DNA from: Heterostelium multicystogenum
Taxonomy: Eukaryota > Evosea > Eumycetozoa > Acytosteliales > Acytosteliaceae
DNA: 64,000 nucleotides
Direction: 5' to 3'
Assembly: GCA_003667245.1 (NCBI GenBank)
Contig: RCNN01000095.1
Span: forward strand, 1 to 64,000
Position 1 is the first letter of the stretch. Each line of letters opens with the position of its first letter. The position numbers and the translations under genes were made by a program. The notes under the pieces were generated by a model, which did no database searches, was not told the origin of the DNA, and was given only the letters and a program-made list of their open reading frames with translations. Shown here in pieces: positions 2,809-47,757 of this stretch.

Positions 2809-7243
<4,435 letters not shown>

Positions 7244-40025: not shown

Positions 40026-41757
40026 ATGAATCCAATTAACGATCGTAAATCCGACTATTGGAAGTACCTCAAGATGAGACAAGGTGAGTCCGATCTCTTC
40101 AAGATTACCGCTTCCGATAAGAGATACATCTGGTTCAACCCTGATCCAAAGGAGCGTGACACCTCCGACTGTGGTCAAATAATCCTTGAGACTGGTGACT
40201 CCTTTGTCTTCAAGACTCCATCTGGTGAGAAGTATTCCGTCAAGAAGGACGACGCCAACCAACCTAATCCAGTCAATTTTGACGGTGTTGAGGATATGTC
40301 TGAAATGTCCTACCTCAACGAGCCAGCTGTCTTCCAAGATCAAGACTTGGAGGCTTTGAGAAACAAAATGTCAGAGTTGCAATCCACCATTGCCAAGCTC
40401 GAAAAGGAAAAGTCTGCCCTCGAAGGTGAAGTTGCTCGTGTCCAAGGAGAATTGGAAGCTCAGCAACTCGTTACGGCCAACCTTGAAAAGTCTAAGAAGA
40501 AAACCGAGGCAGAGCTCGAAGATACCACCATCTACCGTCAAAAAAAGAAGTTGGAGAGCGACATCATCGACTTGAAGACTCAACTTAACACTGAAGCCAA
40601 GGCTCGTTCCAAGGCTGAGAAGGCCAAGAAGAAGTTAGAGCAAATCATTCATGAGATGAGAGCTAAAGAAGAAGGTACATGTATATTCGTCGAAGACCTT
40701 CCAAAGAGAGATTGGGCTGAGGTTGACGAATTGAGAACTCTATTGGACACTGAACGTTCCGTTTTGAACGCGTGTGAAAAGAGGAACAAATCTTTGTTGG
40801 GCGAGATTGAAGAAATCATGGAACAATGGGAAGAGTCTATGCTTGCCAAAGACAAGCTTAACAAGGCCAAGAGATTACTTGAAGTAGAATTAATAGAGAT
40901 CAAAGCTTCCCTCGAAGAAGAAGAAGAGGCCCGTGAAGAGCTGGAAGACATCATTCTTCGTAAGGATCTCGAAGTCGAAGAGTTCAAAAAGAAGTACGAG
41001 GCTGAGCTCGAGACCGCCACTCAAGCTGAAGAGGCCCGTAAGAAGTTGACCGAAGAACTCGAAGTCATCAAGAAGGCTCTCGATCGAGAGAAGAAGGCCC
41101 GTAATGATGCTGAGGTCAAGAACAGAAACCGTGCCGAAAAAGAAGAAGTCTGACAAGGACTTGCGTACTGCCAAAGATAAGCTTAGCGATGAGGCAGCCA
41201 CCAATACCCAAAGATTTTCCTGAGCTAGTCGACTACACCTAAGAAGCCAAATCCGAAGCCTAGAATGATCGTTGTCTCCAAGAATTTGACCTTGAGGAAG
41301 CCAGTCGTAGCTTGCAAAGGAAATCGATGCAAAGGAGCTCATCGAAGTTAAGGGAAGTCTCAAAGAAGAAACCATAGCAATGCTGACCGTTCCCGTAAGA
41401 GACTCGACAGCGAGAATGATGCTTTGACTGCCCAAGTTGACGCCGAGCAAAAGGCTTTGAAGGACTTCAAGAAGGTCGAAGCTGAACTCTAGGAGATCAA
41501 GAAGTACGGTGAAGTTGAGAAGACCGTGACCAGAGAGACAATCTCCGCTGAGAAGCTCGATTCCGATTTGCGTAAATCCAAGAAGGTCAGCCGACGAACA
41601 ACGCCCGTCTCTCTCAACCGAAATCCGTAAGTTGCAATCCGACATTGTCTTGCTCAAGGACTCCATTGAGAAGACCAAGAGAGAGTTAGAAGCCGAGTCA
41701 TGATTCAAGCGAGACATGCAACGTCGTATGGCTGAGTTCTTCAACAATTACAAATAA
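40026..41757 (+). pseudogene. motorless myosin II heavy chain relic (mhcA-derived)
   Basis: Residues 1-103 match the N-terminal SH3-like part of Dictyostelium myosin II heavy chain (MNPINDRKSDYWKYLK, DKRYIWFNPDPKERD, KKDDANQ, FDGVEDMSEMSYLNEPAVF). Where the motor domain should follow (about codon 104, base 40335) the frame passes directly into tail coiled coil (DLEALRNKMSELQSTIAKLE and on), with no P-loop, switch, converter or IQ motif. The first 375 codons are open. Beyond 41153 the tail is still readable (AEKLDSDLRKSKK, MQRRMAEFFNNYK) but has a frame break plus in-frame stops within the coiled coil: TAA and TAG in the 41240-41265 block, TAG near 41491, TGA near 41701. Codon usage is GC-rich and highly biased, like a highly expressed parent. 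I call it a pseudogene of a partial duplication; the open 375-codon part could still make protein. Confidence 0.75.
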
Positions 41758-42127: not shown

Positions 42128-44169
42128 ATGGCAAGAACTGTATGTGTAAGAATGTAACAAAATCTGATTCTGATATTAATTTCTATGACTTACTATAGAA
42201 ACAGACAGCAAGGAAATCAGGAGGACCTGTCCTTATTGCTAAAAAGCAAGTGCGAAGAAAAAATATTATACCAAAGCAACGGTTAAAAAAACACGATTTG
42301 CAACAAGGAAAATGCACCCTATAAGAGTTTCCAAACAGCGATCAGGAAGCAACTCAATGAAGGTACTCCTTCTAGACAACTCGGTATACTAGTTTCAAAG
42401 AGACCAGATAGATATCCAAATATTCCGATTGAATCACAGAGGAGCCAAACTATTGGAAGATCACCATCAGCAGATGTTGTAGTACCAATCGATATGCTAT
42501 CATCAATGTAAGTATTCATTAGATAAAGCGTTCAATCATCTAGCTAACTCATTATCTTAGTCATTGTACAATTGAGATTGGATTGAATGACAGTGGAAAT
42601 CTTGAAATCAATGTGGTTGATAAAAGCACAAATGGAACCTACATTGAAGGTAAGAAGATTGGCAAAGATCTATCGAGTTTATTATTGAACAAACAAACCT
42701 TGAGTCTCTATATATCAAAGAAAGATCCTGGTATGTCATTGATTCAAAGTTGATACAATGATAGATAGACTCATCACTAACACCAAAATCTAGATATGAA
42801 TGTTGAATATGAATATCAAGAGAACATGGATAGTATTTTTGATTTAGAATCTGAATCATTGAAGAATATCACTGTTCCTGATATAAAAGAGATATGTCAT
42901 GCCATCAAGGTCGATGATGAGGTCTCTAAATTGTCGAAAGATATGTTGGTAGTGGCATACCGCCAAACCAGAGTGAGAAATTACAACTACGAACGATTGG
43001 CGATTTCAATGTCGAACTTTGAAGAAACAAGCGAATCTTCTGCAACAACAACTCTGCCACCTCATATCATCTGGAGAATATTTAAATACTGTTGGTATCA
43101 ACCATTTATGGGTGAAATTTATTCACGTAGACCGTTTAATTCTTGGAAGCTGTCACTCTCGCTACTGTCCAAAGAGTACTTTTACTTGGTTAGCCATGAG
43201 CTATTCAATTCTATATCGTTGATAAACTCCAACTATTTTTATTTCAAAACGAATCGTATTCGCTTCTACCCCAAGCTAATACATCCTTGTAACCTGTTCA
43301 CTAAGATACGCAAGCTTGAGGTAGGTGACAATGTATTTCAGGACCTTATCAACATTAAAAATTTATCGAGCTCTGTGTATGAGCTTCCAATCTTCCAAAG
43401 TCTACAGGTTCTTATTTTGCACCAGAGGGGAGGAAAACATGATTCCATGGAAGAGCTTGTCATGCCAAATATTAGAAAACTAAAAGTCTATAACAGTGAT
43501 ACTTATTATAAGTTTTTGGACTTATTCATCTTCCCCAAACTGAGAAAGCTTGATCTCATGGACGATTTTAAATATTCTTATTTAACACCATTCCAACCGG
43601 TGTTCTCCTACCTAAGTCAAATCTGCGCCAAGTTGGAAGAAATGAAAGGATTTTATCACTATGGATATCGCAAATATGAAAATGGAAATTGCGAAAGGCC
43701 AGAAGTGCAACCAATTCCAGATCCATCAACTCCCCCAGAGACAGAGCCAGAGAAACAAAACACCTCTAGATATCGTTACTACAATACAAAACCAGAGTAT
43801 AGTGGAAAAACAAGGACAAGATTGCTCTCTGTGCCAAAGACATTTTTTAACGATTGCAAAGAAGAGGAATTCCAAGTGCCAGACACTGTACGTGAGATTG
43901 AAATCATGGAGATACTCAATATAAATCAGTTAACCAGTATTCTCAAGGTAATAGAGGATCCAACATTCAAGTATCTTCTCGTATACTTCCCAAAGTTGGA
44001 TGATATCAAGCAGATCGAGAACTTACTTGAAAAGACAGGAACCTTCAAGTATTCTCACTATTCAATGAAACCAATCTCCTCTATGCGTAATCCCGCTTAC
44101 AAGATGTACCTTCTAAATACCAAATTTAAAGAAGTACCACATGAAAATTACTATGCCGAAAAAAAATGA
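42128..44169 (+). CDS. histone H3-tail-like / FHA / F-box-like protein
   Basis: ATG at 42128 encodes MART, then a 59 bp intron (42140-42198, GTATGT...ATAG) joins to KQTARKSGGPVLIAKKQV. After the initiator Met, ten residues, ARTKQTARKS, are identical to histone H3 positions 1-10, followed by GG. After a surplus base near 42312 comes an FHA domain (about 42452-42730) with all key residues: IGRSPSADVVVP, SSIHCTIEIG across an intron at about 42509-42560, and DKSTNGTYIEGKKIGK. A helical segment (VPDIKEICHAIKVDDE, LSKDMLVVAYRQT) faintly recalls SAP. From 43053 an F-box-like module LPPHIIWRIFKYCWYQ, then WKLSLSLLSKEYFYLVSHEL, precedes a leucine-rich C-terminal region (LRKLDLM). The frame stops at 44169, but one surplus A in the run near 44160 would extend it to 44233. 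Probable role: nuclear substrate adaptor in an SCF-type ligase, by inference. Confidence 0.7.
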
Positions 44170-44374: not shown

Positions 44375-45413
44375 TTATAAGTTGTTTGGTGATAGGGCAA
44401 AGTAGTAAGAGTTGATTATTGTAGTCGATAGACCAATGAAAAAATCAAGTCTCCATGTTGCTGTACCTCCGACTCCCATTCCACATGTTTTGGCATAAAG
44501 GGAAGATGGAGTATCAAATTGATATTGACGAACTGACATTGAGTTGGTATCAGTAATAACATTGATGTATGGTTCACCTGTTGGTAGTGTTTGAAAAGAA
44601 ATAAATTGATATTCCTCCGATAAACGTAGGATTCCATTGACTCCAGTGGCTGTGTTATTGTTTTCTCCATCAATCTTACAGGTGATTCCAAATAAACCAC
44701 CTTCTATAATAGCACAATCAGCATAGTATCCGTATATAGGAAGACCAATCACAATTTTAGCAGGAGTATTGACAAATAACTTCCATTCAAGGACTCTTTC
44801 TCTTACTTCAGAGATAGGAGAATTTGGCGCAAGTGGATTTGAGCTCCATCCCATATCGTAGCACATTAGAATGAAATAATCTGAGTATTCTGAGTTATAG
44901 TTCTCTGGACTGTAGCAACCAACAGCCAAAGATGCTACAAAATTGTTATTTTTTGACTTTAGGTATCCAAAGGCCATTTTGGTCCATTTGTTTTTGTAGC
45001 TATCGGAACTAAAGGAACCTTCAATATCCATGTGAAATCCATCTCCACCCATCTTTATCATCAAGTCAATGTCAGTTTGGTATTGTCCATTTTCGAAATA
45101 ATCGTTACAAGAAGATGAACTTGCAGTGCAACCAATTGAGAACATATGATGGACAGAAACACCCTTTGCATGTGCATTCTCTATCAACTCGTTTAAACAA
45201 TGATGGATCCCAACTGTTGAAATTCGTTATAATATTAGAATTGTTTGTCCACTGAACTACATCTTCATAATAAGAAAATGATTGGTTGTAAATTGTGAAG
45301 TATCCAAAAAATTGTTTACTATTGTAATTTACTCCTGGTGGAAACTGGTATGAAATTACTCCAACTTTGATTAAAAACACAACACAGATAGAAATGAATA
45401 CAAGTTTATTCAT
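44375..45413 (-). CDS. secreted GH18 glycosidase, di-N-acetylchitobiase-like
   Basis: Lysosomal or secreted enzyme predicted to cleave chitobiose cores. The start MNKLVFISICVVFLIKVG is a signal peptide. The catalytic GH18 signature appears as GGDGFHMDIEG (about 45040-45010), fitting D-G-x-x-x-D-x-E with the proton-donor Glu present. Other family features: FGYFTIYNQSF near the N-terminus, YSDYFILMCYDMGW (the beta6 YD motif), KIVIGLPIYGYYADC and TATWRLDFF near the end. Length, about 340 aa, suits CTBS. A surplus A near 45198 breaks the frame at SLF-NELIENAHAKG. The gene is divergent from gephyrin, 270 bp away. Confidence 0.85.
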
Positions 45414-45683
45414 TTTTATAATTTAGTAAACTGAATAAATATTCAAGAGAATGTTACTTGCCTAGATATCCTAAAGAAAAAATATAACCAATATTGTTTT
45501 TAGAAGTGGACTCAAAATATCTTTCATCATCGGAAACCAAAAAAAGAGACAAGAATACCCCATATTTTAATATCTTAAATTAATTTGCTGTAACCCATGA
45601 ATGAAATTCAAAAAACAACTTAAATGAAACGTGACTCATGAATTATCTGAAGATTAAAAAAACAACGATATTCATATTAAAGA

Positions 45684-47757
45684 ATGACAGACACACAACA
45701 ACAACAAGTACCGCAAACACCATCGTGGGAGATCGGTGTTTTAACTATCAGTGATAGAGTCAGTAGACAACAAGCTATCGATCAATCTGGTCCTGAGCTT
45801 ATTACTATTATAAAGGAACAACTCAAGGTTATTTTGGAATCACAGTTGGGTATCTCTTTGAAGATATCTGTCATCTACAAAGTGGTTCCCGATGAAATCG
45901 ATGCTATTCAGTCAATGGTCAAGCAATGGATTGCTAATGAGTTCAGATTGATTGTCACCACCGGTGGTACTGGTTTCTCACCACGTGATCTGACTCCTGA
46001 AGCGATTGAGCCATTGTTACAGAAAAAAAGCACCAGGTATTGTTGTTGCAATGCTCAAGAATAGTCTCGAAATCACCTCGCATGCAATGTTGAGCAGACC
46101 TGTTGCTTGGAATCGCTGGATTGTCTCTCATCATAACATTGCCAGGCAGCGTCAAAGGTGTTCGTGAGAATTTCACTACTGTTATGGCGGCACTTCCACA
46201 TGCCCTGGCTCTTATTGGTAGTGATCAGAAGGCATCTTTACCAGAGAGCCATCAGGCAAAGGATAAGCATCGACAACCAACTTCAATATCATCTGATGAT
46301 GTTCAAAAGCATGGACATGGACACAGTCACGGACATGGTCATTCTCATGGTCATAGTCACAGTCATGGACATAGCTGTGGAGGAAACAAAGACAGTGTTA
46401 GAGGATCAAAGTACCCAATGATAGATGTAGATCAAGCTGTTAAAATGATTTTAGAGCAATCTAAAGATATAAAGACAATTGAATCCATTCCAATTGAACA
46501 ATCACTTGGTATGGCATGTGCAACTTCAGTTCAATCTGTCGAGCCATTCCCACCATTTAGAGCATCGATTAAAGATGGTTATGCTGTTCGAGCAAAGGAT
46601 GGTTCTGGTCGCTATGTTGTATTGGGAAGCGCTTTGGCAGGTGGTGGTGATGCACACCGCTTGTCTGAACAACAATTAAAAGCAGAGAGAACCTGTGTTC
46701 GTATTACTACAGGTGCAATGATACCCGAGGGATATGATGCTGTCGTCATGGTTGAGGATACACAAATCATCAGTAAGGCAACAGATTCAGAATTAGAAGT
46801 TATCAATGTAGATGTTGGTGTTGCTGTTGGACAAGATATTAGAGCAATAGGAAGTGACATCAAAGCTGGTACAACTGTACTCAACAAAGGGGACAAGATT
46901 GGTGCTGCAGAGATTGGACTACTTGCAACTCTTGGTGTTACAACTATTTCAGTCTTCAAACCACCAAAGATTACTGTATGTACCATAACGAATAGAACTT
47001 TATTAAATCATCTAACATTGAAATCAATAGATTATTTCGACAGGAGACGAGTTAATGCCTCATGACACCAAGGAAGTTAAAGAAGGATTCATTAGAGATT
47101 CCAATTCTTTGACACTAAAATCAATAGTTAAAGAAGCAAGTCAACATTTTTGGTGAAGTTGGTTCTAAAACAGTCGAAAACTATGGTATCGTTAAGGATC
47201 AATTGGAGCCACTTAAAGAAGCTTTGATAAAGAGTTCAGAGTCATCAGATGTCATTATTACTAGTGGTGGTGTTTCCATGGGTGAGCTTGATCTTGTTAA
47301 ACCACTCCTTGAAAAAATGGGTAAAGTGCATTTCGGTCGTGTAAATATGAAACCAGGTAAACCTTTGACCTTTGCAACTATAGAGAACGCCCAAACCGGT
47401 AAGAAGACACTCGTATTCGCCTTGCCAGGTAATCCCGTAAGTACAATGGTTACATTCTACCTTTTTGTGCTTCCTGCTCTGCGTCAGATGTCAGGACACA
47501 CCGATATCAATCTACCATTGGTAGAAACCAAACTTGGAGAAAGTGTTAGAATGGATCCAGAGAGACCAGAGTACCACCGTTGTTTTATCAAGTGGGACTT
47601 CAATCAAAACTGCTTCGTTTCTCAAAGCACAGGCTCACAAGCATCCTGTCGTTTACTTAGTATGAAAAAATCAAATGCTCTCCTGATTCTCCCACAGAAA
47701 GAAGGAGTCCTTGAAAAAGGAACATCTTTAAAGGCAATGGTAATTGGACCACTATAA
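45684..47757 (+). CDS. gphn: gephyrin/Cnx1-type molybdenum cofactor protein (MogA-MoeA fusion)
   Basis: Two-domain enzyme for the last steps of molybdenum cofactor synthesis: adenylylation of molybdopterin (G domain) and molybdate insertion (E domain). The G domain comes first: IGVLTISDRVS, VTTGGTGFSPRDLTPEAIEP, MLSRPV and LSLIITLPGSVKGVRENF. A linker with about ten alternating His-Gly/His-Ser residues (46312-46377) follows. The E domain has PPFRASIKDGYAVRAKDG, GAMIPEGYDAVVMVEDT, GSDIKAG, STGDELM after an intron (about 46977-47031), SGGVSMGELDLV, FGRVNMKPGKPLTFA, FALPGNPVS and STGSQASCRL. G-linker-E order is that of gephyrin and fungal CnxE, not plant CNX1 (E then G). Surplus bases near 46023-46029, 46108 and 47148 break the frame in conserved blocks. 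Confidence 0.92.
46312..46377 (+). other. His-rich linker between gephyrin G and E domains
   Basis: Sequence encodes repeated HGHS/HSHG units ending in HSCGG. Such runs bind Zn, Ni or Cu in metal chaperones and transporters; here the role is inferred only. Confidence 0.8.

What the first reader, a model, noticed from the sequence alone, without database searches (positions are those of the whole stretch)
42128..42270. Histone H3 tail copied at the N-terminus of a non-histone protein
Splicing a 59 bp intron (42140-42198) joins MART to KQTARKSGG. After Met, ten residues are identical to histone H3 A1-S10, with K4, K9 and S10 in place, and GG follows. The next stretch is loosely H3-tail-like too (AKKQV versus PRKQL; KKHD versus KKPH), but no histone fold follows. 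Instead an FHA and an F-box-like region come next. Chance identity is very unlikely. Possible uses: recruiting H3K4/K9 writers or readers to a ubiquitin adaptor, or competing with nucleosomes. Capture of an H3 gene's 5' exon is a plausible origin.
Basis: partly seen in the sequence, partly recalled or inferred. Interest (0 to 1): 0.9.

Follow-up and report, generated by a model that had tools for sequence, protein, structure and literature searches.

The report
Non-histone protein wearing histone H3's tail
A predicted FHA-domain protein, encoded in this genome and in the social amoeba Cavenderia fasciculata and not itself a histone, begins after its start methionine with exactly the first eight residues of histone H3, so the enzymes and adaptors that mark or read the H3 tail would likely act on it too.

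Summary
Predicted splicing of a 59-nt GT-AG intron (42140-42198) gives MARTKQTARKSGG, ten residues identical to H3 A1-S10. The one hit in a search of 5.8 billion proteins, Cavenderia fasciculata DFA_07840 (38-42% identical), also starts MARTKQTAR; the next 15 positions share 2 residues and conservation resumes at the FHA domain. A paralogue in this genome keeps the exon, intron and MARTKQTARKS. Corrections: a one-base frame break in an A7 run (42285-42291) parts tail and FHA exon, probably an assembly error; H3-likeness beyond S10 is weak in the window copy; no profile supports an F-box; none of three H3 genes found here has an intron after MART. Best reading: a histone-H3 mimic of the K4 type. 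K9 is R in C. fasciculata, and both tails fit a published H3K4-methylase motif. Set1-, Sgf29- and PHD-type candidates exist here. Transcription, Met removal, methylation and binding are untested. Histone mimicry is a known kind; an exact, conserved H3 N-terminus on an FHA protein is a new variant.

The parts
42128..42139 (+). exon 1: ATG GCA AGA ACT = MART (H3 A1-R2-T3 after Met)
   Evidence: identical in the C49 paralogue; the pattern ATGGCNMGNACNGTNNRNG occurs at two places in the genome, this one and the paralogue
42140..42198 (+). intron 1, 59 nt, GTATGT...TAG (predicted)
   Evidence: 54 of 59 columns identical in the paralogue, splice signals kept
42199..42228 (+). start of exon 2: KQTARKSGGP, completing ARTKQTARKS
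42229..42284 (+). rest of the basic, poorly conserved tail (VLIAKKQVRRKNIIPKQR and most of the next codon)
42285..42291 (+). A7 run where the tail frame and the FHA frame part by one base (probable assembly error, or a real lesion)
   Evidence: the paralogue is one base shorter here and reads on in the FHA frame
42287..42507 (+). rest of exon 2: linker (NKENAPYKSF...) and first half of the FHA domain (TIGRSPSADVVVPIDM); this frame has no ATG before the FHA domain
42508..42560 (+). intron 2, 53 nt (predicted)
42561..42730 (+). exon 3: FHA core (HCTIEIG...STNGTYIEGKKIG)
   Evidence: Pfam FHA 23.4 bits, cut-off 20.7, on the open frame 42544-42753; profile of the two proteins hits CHFR FHA at 8e-10
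42731..42793 (+). intron 3, 63 nt (predicted)
42794..44169 (+). exon 4: SAP-like segment, LPxxII... F-box-like motif, then LRR-like C-terminus; related frames on C74 and C29 show no FHA match beside them
   Evidence: labels SAP, F-box and LRR are motif level only

Best explanation
This gene encodes a predicted FHA-domain protein whose first residues copy the N-terminus of histone H3, and it likely works as an H3K4-type histone mimic: its tail would be marked by Set1 or docked by H3K4 readers, bringing the FHA/C-terminal module to chromatin regulators. Shown by sequence: MARTKQTAR at the start of the reconstructed protein here, of a paralogue in the same genome, and of an annotated orthologue in C. 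fasciculata, with the flanking tail free to change; an FHA domain downstream; candidate Set1, Sgf29-type Tudor and PHD proteins in the same genome. Inferred: transcription and splicing, that the one-base frame break is an assembly error, removal of the first Met to expose Ala1, methylation of Lys4, and binding by a reader. The choice of K4 over K9 rests on the invariant block ending at R8, with K9 and S10 replaced by R and V in C. fasciculata, and on ARTKQTARK and ARTKQTARR both fitting the published substrate motif of MLL4, an H3K4 methyltransferase of the COMPASS type.
For: Against the C. fasciculata orthologue residues 2-9 are identical 8 of 8, residues 10-24 2 of 15 (2 gapped), 25-105 18 of 81 (17 gapped), FHA 106-184 40 of 79; MARTKQTAR ties with one other 9-mer for the longest identical run of the alignment. 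The paralogue on C49 keeps all 11 residues MARTKQTARKS, with one synonymous change, beside indels and replacements in the rest of the tail. A profile of the two proteins searched against PDB sequences gave, in the 60 rows shown of 138, FHA-domain chains and H3-family chains (FHA best 8e-10; H3 weak, best E 0.0096). The C. fasciculata tail goes on TGGFVAPRRHVGT, resembling H3 TGGKAPRKQLAT (243, 605 and 1,186 of 20,000 shuffles score as well against three H3 tails, uncorrected). Codons of the copy differ from the C114 and C477 H3 genes at 6 and 7 of 10 positions, all synonymous, so it is not a recent H3 fragment. MLL4 motif [LAPIGV][VPLRKI][TVIALYS]KXXX[GRKP][RK], passages of PMC12551112. In D. 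discoideum Set1 is the sole H3K4 methylase and Sgf29 reads H3K4me3, passages of PMC8053100. In this genome: a Set1-type SET fragment on C104 (3e-40 to H3K4-specific methylases), SGF29 Tudor on C165 (2e-19), 17 PHD matches over cut-off, some in the same stretch.
Against: No transcript or protein evidence. As assembled, neither copy in this genome has an unbroken frame: the window copy has one break, the C49 copy a TAG and several indels, so both could be pseudogenes here. No reader or writer has been shown to touch it. The MLL4 paper itself warns that its motif predicts poorly: in CFP1 the experimentally methylated lysines did not follow it (passages). H3 is vastly more abundant; for LIG1 a 350-1000-fold excess of H3K9 methylation was modelled to out-compete the mimic (passages of PMC7585203). 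No third species was found, so conservation rests on two lineages. The N-SET family, expected in Set1, was not found, though that search's controls were silent too. The C-terminal module was not identified by any profile.
Confidence: 0.5

Rival explanations
1. The H3-like N-terminus is a phosphothreonine switch for FHA domains: an H3T3 kinase (haspin-like) would phosphorylate T3 (or T6) and an FHA domain, its own in trans or that of another protein, would bind it, giving oligomers as recalled for MDC1 (pT4 and FHA).
For: The FHA domain keeps the residues recalled as pThr-binding (GR, S..H, STNG) in both species; T3 and T6 are in the invariant block; haspin-family profile matches exist in this genome (3 of 4 places over cut-off, best 34.9 bits).
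Against: Does not by itself explain identity to H3 at A1, R2, K4, Q5 and A7; the haspin hits are weak and may be other kinases; the MDC1 precedent is recalled (one search found no paper).
Confidence: 0.15
2. A sponge or competitor: the free H3-like tail would titrate an H3-tail enzyme or reader away from nucleosomes instead of recruiting it.
For: Same sequence evidence as the best explanation; nothing in the sequence separates docking from competition.
Against: Stoichiometry: H3 exceeds such mimics by orders of magnitude (modelled for LIG1, passages of PMC7585203), so global competition is unlikely unless local.
Confidence: 0.08
3. A relic: an H3 gene's 5' end was once fused to an FHA/SAP gene; the N-terminus is now only a leader, and the copies in this genome are decaying pseudogenes.
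For: Both copies here carry frame lesions as assembled; dN/dS between them about 0.49 over 568 codons; the C. fasciculata tail still resembles H3 to about residue 22, suggesting a longer H3-derived ancestor.
Against: 8 of 8 identity at the N-terminus beside 2 of 15 in the next positions does not look like neutral decay; the C. fasciculata protein is a full 632-residue model; this assembly also breaks the frame of an H3 gene (C477), so single indels may well be sequencing errors.
Confidence: 0.17
4. Artefact: the MART exon does not belong to this gene, or the match is chance.
For: Splicing is predicted, not observed.
Against: An independent annotated protein in another species starts MARTKQTAR; the paralogue shares exon, intron and frame; chance about 1.4e-9 genome-wide under an assumed 12,000 genes.
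Confidence: 0.04

Closest known systems
SNAG domain (Snail/GFI1) N-terminal H3 mimic that hooks LSD1
   Same: H3-like motif described as H3-mimicking and as a molecular hook for LSD1, a demethylase of H3K4 (passages of PMC8080763); N-terminal position recalled
   Different: SNAG only resembles the H3 tail (sequence recalled), sits on zinc-finger repressors and binds LSD1; here eight to ten residues are exactly H3, on an FHA protein, partner unknown
UHRF1 ligands LIG1 (K126) and PAF15 (N-terminal VRTK, recalled)
   Same: non-histone proteins carrying H3-like motifs for an H3 reader; LIG1 called a histone mimic in passages of PMC7585203
   Different: H3K9-like site at K126 (LIG1) or partial N-terminal likeness (PAF15, recalled); no FHA that I know of
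H3K9-type mimics (G9a/EHMT substrates, ARKS/ARKT motifs)
   Same: short H3-like motif on a non-histone protein (recalled; review titles seen in the listing)
   Different: K9 and S10 are not conserved here; the conserved part is A1-R8
FHA proteins: CHFR and checkpoint kinases DUN1, MEK1, RAD53
   Same: FHA domain; best solved relatives of the two-protein profile (CHFR 8e-10, DUN1 1e-7); two weaker FHA hits in this genome lie beside frames that look like kinases by eye (C15, C198)
   Different: none is known to me to start with an H3 tail; no RING or kinase family matched P0001
SAP-like/F-box-like/LRR-like frames of this genome (C74, C29, C210)
   Same: C-terminal module alignable from just after the FHA domain
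   Different: no FHA match to either protein in the C74 and C29 stretches fetched

Membership tests
Histone H3 | histone fold after the tail | tested here: not met
   Pfam finds FHA and no histone fold in P0001 at E 10; none in the window frames at E 1
Histone H3 | N-terminal tail ARTKQTARKS | tested here: met
   10 of 10 in the window; 8 of 10 in C. fasciculata
Histone mimic (H3 type) | exact or near copy of a modifiable H3 segment in a non-histone protein | tested here: met
Histone mimic (H3 type) | segment conserved above its surroundings | tested here: met
   8 of 8, then 2 of 15 positions; one orthologue and one paralogue only
Histone mimic (H3 type) | modified or bound by an H3 writer, reader or eraser | not testable with these tools
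   candidate partners present; no binding data
Histone mimic (H3 type) | free Ala1 after Met removal | not testable with these tools
   Met-Ala is a standard methionine aminopeptidase site (recalled)
SNAG domain | SNAG consensus and zinc fingers | tested here: not met
   tail is H3 itself, not the SNAG consensus (recalled); no zinc-finger family over its cut-off in P0001 or the window frames (zf-SCNM1 15.9 bits against a cut-off of 27)
FHA domain | Pfam PF00498 above cut-off with GR, S..H and NG motifs | tested here: met
   43.1 bits in P0001, 23.4 bits in the exon 3 frame alone, cut-off 20.7; motifs in the alignment
F-box protein | F-box profile match | tested here: not met
   no Pfam F-box at E 1 (window exon 4) or E 10 (P0001 and three related frames); a six-sequence profile hits 0 PDB chains at E 10; only an LPxxII...LSL.SKE.F motif by eye
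SAP domain | SAP profile match | tested here: inconclusive
   only the C29 frame: SAP 0.05 and Rho_N 9e-4, both below their cut-offs
Set1/MLL substrate | fits the MLL4 motif over H3 positions 1-9 | tested here: met
   ARTKQTARK and ARTKQTARR both fit the motif in PMC12551112 (passages); in vitro peptide-array motif, and that paper notes its limits

The most novel reading that the evidence does not exclude
Cavenderia-type amoebae carry a second bearer of the H3 N-terminal code: a non-nucleosomal FHA adaptor that is trimethylated on its own 'K4' by Set1 and so broadcasts an H3K4me3 signal away from chromatin, kept exact over residues 1-8 while the rest of its tail drifted.
Probability: 0.35. Interest if true: 0.9.

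Novelty: new variant of a known kind. Interest (0 to 1): 0.74.

Why it matters
The H3 mimics I know of mostly resemble the tail or copy the K9 motif. A cellular protein whose N-terminus is exactly H3 A1-R8, conserved between species whose versions are otherwise about 40% identical, would be a natural experiment on what H3K4 writers and readers need. It would also show that histone-code machinery can be given a non-nucleosomal substrate, which should be testable in an amoeba. Practically, antibodies to H3K4me3 could cross-react with it.

Tried and rejected
Rejected: chance; recent H3 insertion (codon differences); extended H3 likeness of the window's own tail; K9-type mimicry as the main role (K9R, S10V in C. 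fasciculata); F-box adaptor as an established label; capture of a 5' exon from an H3 gene with the same intron (the C114 and C477 genes run through MARTKQTARKS without an intron, and so does the C100 variant through MARTKNTARKTTGG, its introns lying further on).

Led nowhere: AlphaFold2 on P0001 with 3 rows gave mean pLDDT 37.5, so no fold search was run. The N-SET search found nothing here and its control genomes were silent too. A database search for other proteins of similar length with an H3 tail gave 1,166 hits of which the best 120 were listed; as I read the list all 120 carry a histone-fold family (PF00125), so it neither shows nor excludes other non-histone H3-tail proteins among the 1,046 not listed. 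Genome-wide pattern AARCARACNGCNMGNMRN gave 8 sites: the window, the paralogue, two H3 genes, and four others (C40, C84, C472, C511) with no MART codons in the 130 bases upstream shown. The profile search for further orthologues added two insignificant FHA hits, E 0.86 and 7.0 (only the 7,996 candidates sharing most words were scored). Literature: 'histone mimicry' with 'ARTKQT' 0 papers; 'Dictyostelium' with 'histone mimic' 1 paper, listing only, not opened; other listings (0 papers). Of the listed papers I opened five, in passages only. The held library is open-licence PMC only, so this is not proof that nothing is in print.

Full report
What is there. The window lies at C95:1-64000 of an unnamed 29.7 Mb assembly in 528 contigs; the one relative found for this gene is from the social amoeba Cavenderia fasciculata, so I take the genome, by inference, to be a dictyostelid. 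At 42128 an ATG opens MART, followed by a 59-nt GT-AG intron and KQTARKSGG. After Met this is H3 A1-S10, ten of ten, with T11 missing before GG. An in-frame stop lies upstream with no other ATG between, and reading on into the intron stops after nine residues (from the sequence). The 10-mer has a chance expectation near 1.4e-9 per genome under an assumed 12,000 genes, the first eight residues 1.9e-7.

The frame. Read literally, the spliced tail frame stops after 45 residues, and the FHA frame (42287-42507), which has no ATG before the FHA domain, is one base off; the two part at an A7 run, 42285-42291. The C49 paralogue is one base shorter at that place and reads tail and linker in one frame, as far as a TAG. 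The assembly also breaks the frame of an H3 gene on C477 (two overlapping pieces in different frames). A homopolymer error is therefore my preferred reading of the A7 run; a real lesion is not excluded. With the frames joined, the model used for searching is 621 residues, with introns of 59, 53 and 63 nt.

The orthologue. Searching that model against 5.8 billion proteins (6,390 candidates scored) gave one hit at E 10 or better: P0001, DFA_07840 of C. fasciculata, 632 residues, 38% identical over 100% of the query, E 5e-116. It begins MARTKQTARRVTGGFVAPRRHVGT. In the pairwise alignment residues 2-9 are 8 of 8 identical, 10-24 are 2 of 15, 25-105 are 18 of 81 (17 gapped), FHA 106-184 is 40 of 79. 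MARTKQTAR ties with YCWYQPFMG for the longest identical run in the protein. A profile of the two proteins, run against PDB sequences, returned in the 60 rows shown of 138 FHA-domain chains (CHFR 8e-10, DUN1 1e-7, then MEK1 and RAD53) and H3-family chains including Cse4 and H3 chimeras; the H3 matches are weak (best E 0.0096), as expected for so short a segment. A profile search for more relatives added only two insignificant FHA hits.

The paralogue. C49 carries a copy, 86-95% identical over exons 2 to 4 and 91-94% over the three introns, with homology starting six bases before the ATG. Its first 11 codons differ by one synonymous change; the rest of the tail differs by replacements and indels. 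It has a TAG and several frame-changing indels, so it may be a pseudogene or suffer the same assembly noise. dN/dS between the copies is about 0.49 over 568 codons after the tail and 0.47 over 29 tail codons, with the stop and gapped codons left out; this is only mild constraint.

Origin. The search found three H3 genes: C114 (MARTKQTARKSTGAK), C477 (MARTKQTARKSTGAK) and C100 (MARTKNTARKTTGGK). The first two run through the tail without an intron, and C100's introns lie further on. The copy's codons differ from C114 at 6 of 10 positions and from C477 at 7 of 10, all synonymous. The C. fasciculata tail resembles H3 a little further (TGGFVAPRRHVGT; 243, 605 and 1,186 of 20,000 shuffles score as well against three H3 tails), the window's own tail hardly (684, 1,818 and 15,603), nor does the paralogue's (1,149, 1,760 and 2,109); none of these is corrected for multiple tests. 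A longer H3-derived ancestor that has eroded to its first eight residues is plausible, but convergence is not excluded. The C-terminal half aligns to frames on C74 and C29 that have an ATG just at the boundary after the FHA domain and no FHA match in the stretches fetched; the C29 frame stays open further upstream. So H3 tail plus FHA probably joined an older module (inference). That module is SAP-like, F-box-like and LRR-like by eye only; no profile supports it above a cut-off.

Mechanism. The invariant block ends at R8. H3K9 readers and writers would need K9, which is R in C. fasciculata with S10 replaced by V. By contrast, the substrate motif derived for the H3K4 methyltransferase MLL4, [LAPIGV][VPLRKI][TVIALYS]KXXX[GRKP][RK], spans H3 1-9 and fits both ARTKQTARK and ARTKQTARR; the same paper cautions that the motif did not predict the lysines found methylated in CFP1 (passages of PMC12551112). 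In D. discoideum Set1 is the sole H3K4 methyltransferase and Sgf29 recognises H3K4me3 (passages of PMC8053100); 31 of 123 PHD-containing query proteins bound the H3 N-terminus (passages of PMC6979384). This genome has a SET fragment on C104 closest to H3K4-specific methylases (3e-40), an SGF29 Tudor domain on C165 (2e-19) and 17 PHD matches over cut-off; the N-SET family was not found, with silent controls. I therefore propose docking through an H3K4-type N-terminus. Met removal before Ala is standard knowledge, recalled. The chief rival inside biology is a phosphothreonine switch for FHA domains; the chief rival outside it is that the copies in this genome are decaying.

Caution on dosage. 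For LIG1, a mimic of H3K9, a 350-1000-fold excess of H3K9 methylation was modelled to out-compete the mimic, and no effect on DNA methylation was seen in several cancer cell lines (passages of PMC7585203). A mimic here would need local concentration or avidity, which the FHA domain could supply (inference).

Known and new. Histone mimicry is known: SNAG domains hook LSD1 as an H3-mimicking motif (passages of PMC8080763), LIG1 for UHRF1, PAF15 and MDC1 precedents recalled. My searches of the held open-licence library listed no paper that describes, by title or by the start of its abstract, an exact H3 N-terminus on an FHA protein (most listed papers were not opened). I file it as a new variant of a known kind.

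Noticed in passing
window 40026-41757 +: A myosin II heavy-chain-like copy without motor: Myosin_N SH3-like segment (aa 31-76, 21.2 bits, below its cut-off of 27) and coiled-coil tail (aa 169-372) in one frame with no head domain matched between; frame broken after 41153. Probably a pseudogene or a deletion derivative.
   Followed up: partly
window 45681-47065 +: MoCF_biosynth (MogA-like) followed by MoeA_N with a His-rich linker, a gephyrin/Cnx1-like fusion; the two frames part near 46064-46094.
   Followed up: no
window 44378-45422 -: Glycosyl hydrolase family 18 (chitinase-like) frame next to the FHA gene.
   Followed up: no
window 3219-3497 +: A PHD finger (27.7 bits, cut-off 24) lies in the same window, about 39 kb from the H3-tail gene.
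   Followed up: partly
L003 (G000:C100:77234-80410): Divergent H3 variant MARTKNTARKTTGGKVPRK whose match is split as if by introns; Q5 and S10 changed.
   Followed up: no
L002/L004 (G000:C477:35129-35532): H3 gene with a frame break inside the histone fold, a sign of indel errors in this assembly; a SET-domain frame that looks Set2-like by eye lies about 1.5 kb away.
   Followed up: partly
L042, L045, L044 (C74, C29, C210): Unnamed SAP-like/F-box-like/LRR-like frames with no Pfam match over a cut-off.
   Followed up: partly
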